From NCBI GenBank assembly GCA_002779995.1, contig PEWX01000088.1:1-47083 (forward strand): 47,083 bases of DNA. Direction: 5' to 3'. A model generated the notes under the pieces. The model saw only the letters and a list, made by a program, of their open reading frames with translations, ran no database searches and was not told where the DNA came from. The position numbers were made by a program, and so were the translations under genes. Position 1 is the stretch's first letter; every line of letters starts with the position of its first letter. The DNA comes from Piscirickettsiaceae bacterium CG07_land_8_20_14_0_80_44_28 (GTDB lineage: Bacteria; Pseudomonadota; Gammaproteobacteria; Thiomicrospirales; Thiomicrospiraceae). Shown piece by piece: positions 44,434-47,083 of the stretch.

Positions 44434-45501
44434 ATGAACGCAGATTGGAAAACTTTTTTGACCGATGCCGGCGCCCAACTTAACGATCAAGATGAAATCA
44501 CCACCTTCGGTCAACCCGATATTGAACGATTTATGATTAAAAATGGCCCCGTGATTACCAGCCTGTCGCATCAAGCCATAATCAAGGTGAGCGGAAAAGA
44601 CACCTTTGATTTTTTACAAGGACAACTCAGCAACGATTTAAGCGAAGTCACCAACCACCAAGCGCAATTAACGAGTTATTGCGAACCGCAAGGAAAAGTG
44701 CTGGCAATCATAATGATTTTCAAACAAGCGGATGACTTTTACCTCAACTTTGATGGCTCTTTAACAGAAACCATTTTAAAACGACTCAGCATGTTTAAAA
44801 TGCGCTCAAACGTCACCCTAGAAAACCTGTCGGACGAATGGATTCAAATAGGCTATGCAGGGGAATTTGCCGACTTAGATGTGCAACGCCTGCTTTCAAC
44901 CAAAATCAAAAACATCTATGAAGTGCAGCCGCTCCAATCAGAAGACTTGTCCGACATTCTTGCCGTCAAAATTCCGGGGCCTTACCACTGCTATCAGTTT
45001 TTTGGCACCATTGAACAAAGCAAATTACTTTGGAAACAACTGAAAAACAATGGTGAATACACCAATAACCAAGACTGGAAACTCATTCAGATTGTCAGCG
45101 GCCAACCCCAAGTCAACCAAGCCACCTCAAATGAATTTATTGCTCAATTTTTAAACCTAGACAAACTCAACGCCATCAACTTCAAAAAAGGCTGTTTTCC
45201 AGGACAAGAAACCATTGCCAAAATGCACTACCGTGGCAAAGTCACCAAAAGAATGCTACGGATTCGCTTTGAAAAAGTGGTTGCACTGCAACCCGGTGAA
45301 CCCTTTAAATTAACCGATGAGGCAGGCCGAAATTATAAATTCACCACCATTCTGTCGGCAGAAGACATAATGAAAGGCTCGATTTGTTTAGCCGTCACCA
45401 CCTTAAAACCCTTAGAAGCCGCCCAAGGCCAACTCAAAACCGAATCCGGTGTCGAAGCCCATTTAGAACCGCTGCCCTACCCAATTACCGACCAAGAATA
45501 A
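44434..45501 (+). CDS. ygfZ: folate-binding Fe-S cluster protein YgfZ
   Basis: YgfZ helps maintain some iron-sulfur enzymes and is related to GcvT. The 355 residues carry the signature KKGCFPGQETIAKMHYRGKV, with its conserved Cys, at about residues 247-266. The N-terminal folate domain is consistent (FLQGQLSNDLSEV). AAGGAAG precedes the ATG by the usual spacing. It diverges from the cheW gene and ends at a hairpin. Confidence 0.95.
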   Translation: MNADWKTFLTDAGAQLNDQDEITTFGQPDIERFMIKNGPVITSLSHQAIIKVSGKDTFDFLQGQLSNDLSEVTNHQAQLTSYCEPQGKVLAIIMIFKQADDFYLNFDGSLTETILKRLSMFKMRSNVTLENLSDEWIQIGYAGEFADLDVQRLLSTKIKNIYEVQPLQSEDLSDILAVKIPGPYHCYQFFGTIEQSKLLWKQLKNNGEYTNNQDWKLIQIVSGQPQVNQATSNEFIAQFLNLDKLNAINFKKGCFPGQETIAKMHYRGKVTKRMLRIRFEKVVALQPGEPFKLTDEAGRNYKFTTILSAEDIMKGSICLAVTTLKPLEAAQGQLKTESGVEAHLEPLPYPITDQE

Positions 45502-45511
45502 TGTAAACCCC

Positions 45512-45543
45512 GCCCAAAACGCCCAGACCTGATCATTTTGGGC
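45512..45543 (+). terminator. hairpin after ygfZ with a decayed CCAGGCCTGG core
   Basis: GCCCAAAA (45512-45519) pairs with TTTTGGGC (45536-45543). The loop contains CCCAGACCTGATCATTTT, which matches the dispersed decamer and its tail except for two G-to-A changes. It likely served as, or derives from, a terminator of the same design as those at 834, 13270 and 21383. Confidence 0.6.
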
Positions 45544-45566
45544 TATCAAGCTCGACCTAAAGCGCA

Positions 45567-45621
45567 GCTACCCGCGTTCCCAGGTTCCGCGCTACCCTCG
45601 TTCCCACGCTCTGCGTGGGAA
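45567..45621. repeat. REP-like palindrome with a 24-bp tandem unit
   Basis: Two 24-bp direct units (45567-45590 and 45591-45614, about 20 of 24 matching) end in a perfect hairpin, TTCCCACGC-TCT-GCGTGGGAA (45601-45621). Hairpins of this GTTCCCACGC type occur as dispersed repeats in many proteobacteria. The IS110-type element lies just downstream; some of its relatives insert at such palindromes. Confidence 0.6.
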
Positions 45622-45623
45622 TG

Positions 45624-45659
45624 CCATACCAGCAGAATCAATCGAGTCTGATGGTATGG
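45624..45659. repeat. inverted repeat just left of the transposase gene
   Basis: CCATACCA (45624-45631) and TGGTATGG (45652-45659) pair across 20 bases. It may be part of the target repeat or of the left end of the insertion sequence. Confidence 0.4.
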
Positions 45660-45741
45660 ACACGCCCGATCATACAAAACGGCTTTACGTTATGCATTGA
45701 GCCAGTATGATTAATGTATTAACTCAAAAAGGAGCGTGCCC

Positions 45742-46758
45742 ATGACTAATGATATTACTACTATTGGTGTTGATATTGCAAAACATACTTTTCATTTAGT
45801 CTTTGCCAATCAACAGGGTAAACCGATTCAGCGTAAGCAATTGAATCGTTCGAAATTTAAAGAACTCATCCAAACGCTTGAGATAACCACCTTTGCTCTT
45901 GAAGCTTGTGGTACCAGCCACTATTGGGCAAGAACCATTCAACAAGCTGGCTATAAAGTAAAGCTCATTAACCCAGCTTTTGTAAAACCGTTTGTGATGT
46001 CGAATAAAAATGACTTTAATGATGCCACGGCGATTGTAGTAGCGGCGACTCAACCGACCATGCGTTATGTTTCTCCTAAATCTACTGAACAACAAGATGT
46101 TCTAATGCTACATCGCATTCGTGAGCGCCTAGTTCATCAGAAAACGGCACTCATTAACCAGATTCGAGGGTTATTGGCTGAATTCGGTATAGTGATAAAA
46201 GGAGGCGCTAAAAACCTGATTAATGAACTGCCCTTTACCTTGGAAGATGCTGAAAACGGTTTATCACCTTTAGGTCGAGAACAATTTTATTTGCTTTATC
46301 AAGACTTAAAACAGATGGATCAACGTCTCAATGAGCAAAGCCTCAAGATTGAAATGCTTGCCAAACAAAACCCCGTGGCCTCAAAACTGCAAAAACTCCC
46401 TGGAGTGGGATTTTTAACCGCATCCGCCATTACCGCTTCCGTTGGCGATCCGCTAGAGTTTAAAAATGGTCGCCAGTTTTCCGCTTGGCTCGGGTTAGTG
46501 CCAAGGCAGAATTCTACAGGTGGTAAAAATATTCTGCTTGGCATCTCTAAGCGCGGAGACAGTTATTTAAGGCGGCTTTTGGTACAAGGTGCTTTAACCG
46601 CGATTGCTCGAACTAAAGGCAATGACAGTCAAGTGACTTGGGCTAAAAAATTACGGCAAGCCAAATGTACTCAAGTTGCGGCGGTGGCTTTAGCCAATAA
46701 AACAGCCAGAATCATGTGGTCATTAATGGCACACGACAAAGAATATCAAGTGATGTAG
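45742..46758 (+). CDS. IS110-family transposase (DEDD type)
   Basis: The 338-residue transposase has an N-terminal RuvC-like domain with the Asp/Glu/Asp/Asp set (Asp11 in GVDIAK, Glu54 in LEACGTSHYW, Asp91 and Asp94 in KNDFNDA). The C-terminal domain has the helix-hairpin-helix (KLPGVGFLTASAITASVGDP) and the serine motif QNSTGGKN, with Ser258 the likely catalytic residue. The ATG follows AAGGAG by 7 bases; an upstream GTG at 45736 is less likely. The gene looks intact. Confidence 0.94.
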   Translation: MTNDITTIGVDIAKHTFHLVFANQQGKPIQRKQLNRSKFKELIQTLEITTFALEACGTSHYWARTIQQAGYKVKLINPAFVKPFVMSNKNDFNDATAIVVAATQPTMRYVSPKSTEQQDVLMLHRIRERLVHQKTALINQIRGLLAEFGIVIKGGAKNLINELPFTLEDAENGLSPLGREQFYLLYQDLKQMDQRLNEQSLKIEMLAKQNPVASKLQKLPGVGFLTASAITASVGDPLEFKNGRQFSAWLGLVPRQNSTGGKNILLGISKRGDSYLRRLLVQGALTAIARTKGNDSQVTWAKKLRQAKCTQVAAVALANKTARIMWSLMAHDKEYQVM

Positions 46759-47083
46759 TTCAAACACAATTAAAACTACTTCACTTTAAACGCTTACCTT
46801 GAAAGCCAAAGCTCATGGTAAAACGGGTTAATCCCACCTTAGCAAGACCTGAAACTGGGGTCAGGGCTTTAAAAGCCCGTGAGTCTGAAGAGGTGCTAGG
46901 GTGCGGATAACATGATGGCTAGTCGGGCGCCTTAAGCCCGACACTTAAGAGCCGAATATACGACCGCTTAACTCGCTTTTAACCCAAGCCAATAGCAGTG
47001 TGAAAAGGTAATCACTAACTAAAAAATGCTGAAAAATGCATTAACGAGACCTTTGCACGAGAACCCTTTGAAAAATGCAAAAT
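46759..47083 (+). other. non-coding right end of the insertion sequence and flank
   Basis: No gene is supported in these 325 bases. The stretch carries two clear hairpins (GGGCT-AGCCC at 46864-46878, GTCGGGC-GCCCGAC at 46922-46942). Beyond about 46990 the sequence turns AT-rich and contains an 11-base direct repeat (TGAAAAATGCA at 47030-47040 and 47069-47079). It then has GAGACCTTTGCACGAG (47046-47061), possibly the tip of another insertion sequence. Confidence 0.5.
46800..46990 (+). ncRNA. candidate bridge RNA of the IS110/IS1111-type element
   Basis: Bridge RNAs are encoded in the non-coding end of IS110-family elements, and in the IS1111 subgroup in the 3' end. This region is in that place, is G-rich and has two consecutive hairpins (46864-46878, 46922-46942) with loops that could hold target- and donor-binding sequences. 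The assignment rests on position and structure only. Confidence 0.3.

What the first reader, a model, noticed from the sequence alone, without database searches (positions are those of the whole stretch)
45742..46990. IS110-type transposase with structured 3' non-coding end: a possible new bridge RNA
The transposase is intact with the DEDD set and the catalytic Ser motif. Downstream lie about 200 bases with two hairpins in the place where IS1111-type elements encode the bridge RNA that sets target and donor choice.
Basis: partly seen in the sequence, partly recalled or inferred. Interest (0 to 1): 0.6.

Follow-up and report, generated by a model that had tools for sequence, protein, structure and literature searches.

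The report
Jumping gene with its guide RNA
This is a new example of a known kind of bacterial jumping gene that carries its own guide RNA for choosing where to insert, and here the guide can be read off the sequence and matches the repeated DNA motif in which the element sits.

Summary
From about 45649 lies an IS1111-group element: an intact 338-aa DEDD/Transposase_20 protein, then a non-coding region whose RNA fold is shared with relatives. A covariance model built without the window finds it at 46798-46970 (68.3 bits, E 1.5e-17; only window hit up to E 10). The two hairpins are target- and donor-binding domains of a bridge RNA/seekRNA.

The right end is not in the window. Another mobile element interrupts the tail at 47045/47046, the contig stops, and the end lies on contig C34 of the same genome.

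The flanks together give AATCAATCGAGTC|TGACCCTATTGATT, an imperfect palindrome. It occurs uninterrupted, with up to 3 mismatches, 16 times in 6 of the 11 genus genomes searched (own included; none in its own). The RNA's two target guides pair with it (8/8, and 8 of 9 plus a wobble; 0 of 200,000 random window sites do as well at both). Guide-to-DNA matching holds in 25 elements and, in six of eight tests, in 9 more.

So: a new, palindrome-targeting member of a kind described in 2024. No RNA was measured. My early 'handshake' idea largely fell once the ends were corrected.

The parts
45636..45648 (+). left half of the target site, AATCAATCGAGTC (half of a 27-bp imperfect palindrome; 11 of 13 arm positions pair)
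   Evidence: with L055 141-154 it gives AATCAATCGAGTCTGACCCTATTGATT; 16 matches with 0-3 mismatches in 6 of 11 genus genomes searched
45649..45655 (+). left terminal extension (7 bp, TGATGGT); its first two bases TG are the proposed core shared with the target. The exact border can slide within the shared TGA
   Evidence: empty sites in sister genomes; core sharing across 33 elements
45656..45666 (+). left subterminal inverted repeat ATGGACACGCC, perfect partner GGCGTGTCCAT at L055 127-137 on contig C34 (12 bp if 45655 is counted too)
45742..46758 (+). tnp: IS1111-group DEDD recombinase, 338 aa (alternative GTG start 45736)
46798..46970 (+). bridge RNA / seekRNA, whole conserved region
   Evidence: model R2 built without the window: 68.3 bits, E 1.5e-17; covariation
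46835..46844 (+). 5' strand of the target-loop stem (CACCTTAGCA)
   Evidence: helix 2: 8 of 8 pairs with changes on both sides
46856..46864 (+). T guide UGGGGUCAG, pairs with top strand CTGACCCTA of the target
46864..46878 (+). apical hairpin of the target loop (GGGCTTTAAAAGCCC)
   Evidence: the T. heinhorstiae copy has different arms that still pair
46881..46888 (+). B guide GAGUCUGA, same letters as the top strand of the target (pairs with the bottom strand)
46894..46903 (+). 3' strand of the target-loop stem (TGCTAGGGTG)
46908..46914 (+). donor guide D5 (UAACAUG against reverse complement of the left end, UACCAUC; 5 of 7)
46923..46941 (+). second hairpin, between the two donor guides
46957..46963 (+). 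donor guide D3 (UAUACGA against right end + core TATATGA; 6 of 7)
47040..47045 (+). ATTAAC, repeated at L055 97-102: direct repeat on either side of the nested element
47046..47083 (+). end of a nested mobile element (GAGACCTTTGCACGAG...), reaching the contig end; same end near the starts of contigs C92 and C96

Best explanation
An IS1111-group insertion sequence whose recombinase binds an RNA transcribed from its own 3' end. Shown from sequence: the RNA's first loop carries two guides, one complementary to the top strand on the right of the site (46856-46864) and one to the bottom strand on the left (46881-46888), overlapping in TGA at the insertion point; the second domain carries two segments matching the element's own left and right ends. 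Inferred: the recombinase-RNA complex joins the circular form (right end + left end) to the target at a shared two-base core (TG here), inserting the element in one orientation at the centre of an imperfect palindrome that is repeated in this genus. Inferred: joining the ends makes the promoter TTGAAA-17-TATGAT that transcribes tnp and the RNA. A second mobile element has since inserted about 40 bp from the right end; the RNA region, both repeats and the joined promoter are kept, so the IS may still be able to move.
For: Protein families. Covariation in 24 sequences. Leave-out model hit in the window. Right end on C34: perfect repeat, ATTAAC on both sides of the nested element, and a tail nearly identical to that of T. 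heinhorstiae. Uninterrupted target in sister genomes: 16 matches in 6 of 11 genomes searched, 0 for the reversed control pattern. Window guides: B 8 of 8, T 8.5 of 9; 0 of 200,000 random window sites as good at both. Own guides against those of other elements: discovery n=25 (window included), all eight tests 0/20,000 permutations; validation n=9: B with core 0, T 0 and 1 (two forms), core in D3 2 and 7 (two forms), D5 12, each of 20,000. Junction promoter spacing 17.
Against: No RNA or transposition data. In validation two of eight tests were not significant: the six-base left flank alone (4456/20,000) and the near-invariant right-end tail (2240/20,000). D5 matches only 5 of 7 in the window and D3 has one mismatch in the core. 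Only one tnp copy exists in the assembly, so no second insertion shows the target. The right end is on another contig, and the pattern search that led to it was not beyond chance by count (8 places with up to one mismatch, 10 for the reversed control). The empty sites alone leave the border free to slide within TGA. Permutations do not correct for relatedness of the elements.
Confidence: 0.93

Rival explanations
1. The hairpins are ordinary regulatory structure (3' UTR, attenuator or terminator) of the transposase gene and do not guide insertion.
For: No RNA was measured; regulatory RNAs of such elements are known (two small RNAs of ISPpu9, PMC8450116, search listing and start of abstract only).
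Against: No terminator-like site was found at 45500-47083. Loops vary with the flanks of each element while stems covary, which a terminator does not explain.
Confidence: 0.04
2. The element is a dead relic: the nested insertion and the single copy mean the RNA is no longer used, and the guide match only records the last jump. (Not exclusive with the best explanation, which concerns how it works or worked.)
For: Another mobile element interrupts the tail; single tnp copy in the assembly; the relative in T. heinhorstiae is decayed.
Against: tnp is intact; RNA fold and both target guides are intact; both repeats and the junction promoter remain. For ISEc11, cargo put after bp 1397 of 1443 was still moved (PMC11187229, parts 3 and 4 of 9).
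Confidence: 0.4
3. C34 carries the right end of a different copy, so the right-hand flank and guide match are not from this insertion.
For: The two pieces are on separate contigs; the repeat pattern also matches exactly once elsewhere (C80), in unrelated sequence.
Against: Only one tnp copy in the assembly; ATTAAC on both sides of the nested element; left and right flanks together give a palindrome found uninterrupted in sister genomes.
Confidence: 0.04

Closest known systems
IS1111-group elements with seekRNA (ISEc11, ISKpn4, ISPst6, ISPa11; PMC11187229)
   Same: RNA region downstream of tnp, subterminal repeats, 7/3 bp extensions, T guide before B guide, overlapping matches in the target, promoter made by joining the ends, no target duplication
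   Different: new sequence, new host lineage (family of Thiomicrorhabdus heinhorstiae), new target palindrome, nested element in the tail
ISPa11, which targets REP sequences of Pseudomonas aeruginosa (PMC11187229; REP targeting in general PMC1525189, search listing and start of abstract only)
   Same: inserts into a short palindromic repeat of its host group
   Different: its target and RNA were not compared with this element here
Bridge RNAs of the IS110 family (IS621; PMC11208160, PMC11208158)
   Same: two-domain RNA with target and donor guides around a shared core
   Different: RNA is in the right end, the order of the guides is reversed, long subterminal repeats are present, and the core varies between elements (TG here), where IS621 and its orthologues have a highly conserved CT (GT, AT and TT also worked)

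Membership tests
IS1111 group of the IS110 family | DEDD RuvC-like domain plus Transposase_20 domain, about 330-350 aa | tested here: met
   338 aa; both Pfam families over cut-off; DEDD residues aligned to IS621
IS1111 group of the IS110 family | subterminal inverted repeats of usually 11-13 bp with 7-bp left and 3-bp right extensions (occasionally 6 and 3) | tested here: met
   perfect 12-bp repeat; taken as 11 bp, as in the relatives, it leaves TGATGGT and ATA outside and restores the empty site; the border can slide within TGA
IS1111 group of the IS110 family | long non-coding region downstream of tnp | tested here: met
   46759 to the nested element at 47046, then L055 97-140
IS1111 group of the IS110 family | insertion without target duplication into one specific site | tested here: met
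   flanks give the uninterrupted sequence seen in sister genomes; single insertion only, in a different species from the empty sites
IS1111 group of the IS110 family | circular intermediate whose junction makes a promoter | tested here: inconclusive
   sequence would give TTGAAA-17-TATGAT; circle not observed
Bridge RNA / seekRNA | conserved structured RNA with an internal target loop and a second domain | tested here: met
Bridge RNA / seekRNA | two target guides, top-strand complement before bottom-strand complement, overlapping in the target | tested here: met
   T 46856-46864, B 46881-46888; 0 of 200,000 random sites
Bridge RNA / seekRNA | donor guides matching the element's ends | tested here: met
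   across elements: D5 0/20,000 (n=25) and 12/20,000 (n=9); weaker in the window itself, 5 of 7 and 6 of 7
Bridge RNA / seekRNA | RNA bound to the recombinase and needed for movement | not testable with these tools
   needs experiment
Rfam families | match at gathering score | tested here: not met
   no family matched in the window

The most novel reading that the evidence does not exclude
In this clade of IS1111 elements the two-base core varies between elements, and is written twice in the RNA: in the bottom-strand target guide and in the donor guide D3. If so, both target and core can be predicted from raw sequence and the core may be re-programmable. A remainder of the data hints that D3 follows the target's second core base over the element's own where they differ (12 against 3, neither 2, in the 17 of 33 elements where they differ), which would be a one-base cross-reading like the IS621 handshake but on the other strand.
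Probability: 0.4. Interest if true: 0.5.

Novelty: new member of a known kind. Interest (0 to 1): 0.32.

Why it matters
It is a clean natural case in which ends, uninterrupted target and guides of an IS1111 bridge RNA can be read from genomes alone. Its host is in the family of Thiomicrorhabdus heinhorstiae (a sulfur-oxidiser genus, from memory); in the one search that named Thiomicrorhabdus, none of the 20 papers listed of 273 mentions it. The model made from 24 sequences has matches in 83 of 369 genomes of the class (some of these supplied its sequences), so it is a practical way to annotate these RNAs and predict targets; Rfam gave no match for this one. IS1111 recombinases are of interest as small programmable DNA-insertion tools (PMC11187229).

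Tried and rejected
1. Reciprocal 'handshake' reading. With the ends set one base off on each side, D3 seemed to read the target's right flank and the B guide the left end. The joined flanks then had two bases more than the empty sites in sister genomes, and the published 7/3 rule with an 11-bp repeat removes one from each side. With that, most of the signal is a shared core: LF[-1] equals RF[1] in 25 of 33 elements, 12 expected. What is left is 12 against 3 at one base.

2. Anchor-free guide scan over whole non-coding regions: weak (left flank: own 6.44 against others 5.94 of 8), because the search space was too wide.

3. First try at the empty-site pattern, with the two extra bases: no match in 11 genomes.

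4. Rfam with a loose threshold: three hits at E 1.4-2.8, far below gathering score. Viral contigs: four stretches matched a pattern, none encodes a relative. Plasmids: at least 5000 records with relatives, all of the 5000 kept below 60% identity; not pursued.

5. Target = the GTTCCCACGC...GCGTGGGAA palindrome at 45600-45621: rejected; the element starts 27 bases downstream, in another palindrome.

6. Another exact match of the right repeat on C80: unrelated sequence around it.

Rows dropped. Discovery: of 39 oriented relatives, 26 had usable ends, picked by eye from the candidates listed (one, L003, added); with the window and L094, L097, L106 and L108 this made 31, of which 26 had both anchors and 25 a long enough right flank. 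A1 used 24 sequences: 23 of these 26 (L087, L090 and L097 left out) plus T. heinhorstiae. Validation: of 52 fetched loci, 42 could not be scored (no anchors or no repeat found by my script), 10 could, and one (L177) was dropped as a false repeat pair, leaving 9; L189 and L190 are copies of the family of L097, so they are not independent of the discovery set. Anchors and window sizes were set after looking at the discovery set.

Full report
WHAT IS THERE. The window is the whole of contig C10 of a 2.28 Mb genome in 122 contigs. Its last 1.4 kb hold an IS1111-group element. The protein (45742-46758) is intact, matches DEDD_Tnp_IS110 and Transposase_20 and aligns to the solved recombinases ISCro4 and IS621 at E 2.4e-12 and 3.2e-12. 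D11, E54, D91 and D94 stand at the DEDD positions; T259 in NSTGG stands where IS621 has S241 (residue names of IS621 from PMC11208158). The IS1111 consensus there is SG or TG (PMC11187229). It is the only tnp copy in its assembly and none was found in the ten other genomes of the genus searched. There the RNA and right end survive, but no left repeat was found with up to 2 mismatches in the 13.2 kb fetched.

THE RNA. The 3' region folds better than shuffles (z -3.58). Aligned with 23 relatives, RNAalifold gives 24 pairs, 17 with changes on both sides. The named-structure count gives 93.6% of cells paired (shuffles 71.6%) and covariation score 0.600 (shuffles 0.171; slid versions at most 0.126); pairs with changes on both sides 17 (shuffles 12.8, 1 of 500 as high). 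A model made from 22 relatives, without the window and T. heinhorstiae, finds the window at 46798-46970 with 68.3 bits, E 1.5e-17, and nothing else in the window up to E 10. The fuller model has matches in 83 of 369 genomes of the class (some of these supplied its training sequences). No Rfam family matches at gathering score.

THE ENDS. The left repeat ATGGACACGCC is at 45656-45666. Its partner is not in the window. A pattern search listed 8 places in the genome with up to one mismatch (10 for the reversed control, so the count alone means nothing); one exact match lies at the very start of contig C34. Its setting makes the case: C34 begins inside another mobile element whose end is followed by ATTAAC and by 38 bases nearly identical to the T. 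heinhorstiae right end, while the window ends ...ATTAAC GAGACC.... So a second element, with ends GAGACCTTTGCA, lies in the tail, and the assembly probably broke there because that element is repeated (the same end near the starts of C92 and C96). The other exact match (C80) is in unrelated sequence.

THE TARGET. The joined flanks were sought in the genus. Sister genomes hold an uninterrupted site: AATCAATCGAGTCTGACCCCATTGATT three times without change in one genome, and 16 matches with up to 3 mismatches in 6 of the 11 genomes searched (own included), 0 for the reversed control pattern; the window's own genome has no other copy. The 27 bases are an imperfect palindrome (11 of 13 arm positions pair), cut by the element at its centre. 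As joined the flanks had two bases too many, which shows that my first ends were off. The published 7-bp left and 3-bp right extensions outside an 11-bp repeat give GAGTC|TGACCC with no duplication. The repeat is in fact perfect over 12 bp here, and the border can slide within the TGA that both junctions share.

THE GUIDES. Against this site the RNA has B = GAGUCUGA (8 of 8) and T = UGGGGUCAG (8 of 9 plus one G-T wobble). Of 200,000 random window sites 37 reach B and none reaches both; 62 of 40,000 reach T. The order T then B and the overlap at the insertion point are as reported for IS1111 seekRNAs (PMC11187229). Across 25 elements, the window's included, each element's guides fit its own flanks and ends better on average than those of the others: B with core 6.50 against 4.71 of 8, T 7.08 against 5.99 of 9, D5 5.58 against 4.79 of 7, core in D3 1.68 against 0.93 of 2, all eight tests 0 of 20,000 permutations. 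In 9 further elements six of eight tests hold: B with core (0/20,000), T (0 and 1), core in D3 (2 and 7), D5 (12); the left flank alone (4456/20,000) and the near-invariant right-end tail (2240/20,000) do not. Two of the nine belong to a family already in the discovery set, and relatedness is not corrected for.

HOW IT LIKELY WORKS. Joining right and left end would give TTGAAA-17-TATGAT, the kind of junction promoter reported for ISEc11. From the circle, tnp and RNA would be transcribed together; the RNA-loaded recombinase would pair the target through T and B and the circle through D5 and D3, and exchange strands at the core. All of this after the sequence matches is inference from the studied members. 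The nested element lies 38-44 bp from the right end; ISEc11 still moved with cargo placed after bp 1397 of 1443 (PMC11187229), so the element is not necessarily dead.

WHAT IS KNOWN. Durrant et al. predicted bridge RNAs in 93.0% of the IS1111 elements of ISfinder, apparently within the right end (PMC11208160, section 12 and passages read). Siddiquee et al. showed seekRNAs for four IS1111 elements, among them ISPa11, which targets REPs (PMC11187229, parts 1-5 of 9 and passages read). The IS621 structure paper was read in passages only (PMC11208158). Figures are not held here, so I cannot say that the variable core is unreported. This is therefore a new member of a known kind.

A CORRECTION OF MY OWN. 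I first read the data as guides that spell the product junctions. That came from ends set one base off; see Tried and rejected. Only a weak remainder stands (12 against 3).

Noticed in passing
window 45600-45621: A second palindrome, GTTCCCACGCTCTGCGTGGGAA, lies just upstream of the target; three similar copies on contigs C83 (two) and C36.
   Followed up: partly
window 47046-47083; L048, L049, L050, L041: Ends of a repeated mobile element (GAGACCTTTGCACGAG). On C11, and with a diverged end on C80, there is a short stretch of roughly 100-150 bases with such an end at one side and an inverted one at the other, perhaps a non-autonomous relative. Family not determined.
   Followed up: partly
L097-L101, L189, L190 (genome G185): An IS1111 relative whose RNA is found in seven places. 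In 5 of 5 copies listed the left flank ends in (G/C)AG and an ATG begins 9-10 bases into the right flank, as if it targets a ribosome-binding site plus start codon.
   Followed up: partly
L188 (G214:C164): Two equal-scoring weak matches of the RNA model (40.8 bits) about 840 bases apart downstream of one tnp match: perhaps an RNA-plus-ends derivative without tnp.
   Followed up: no
L036 (G000:C58): A second, different IS110-family transposase gene in the same genome, beside genes that look like an ABC transporter and a cyanate hydratase-like protein (names from reading the translation).
   Followed up: no
L006, L008, L009, L011: Relatives whose flanks read like attC sites of integron cassettes (motif CTAAC/GTTAGGC recalled, not from a call), as known for an IS1111 subgroup (sequences).
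   Followed up: no
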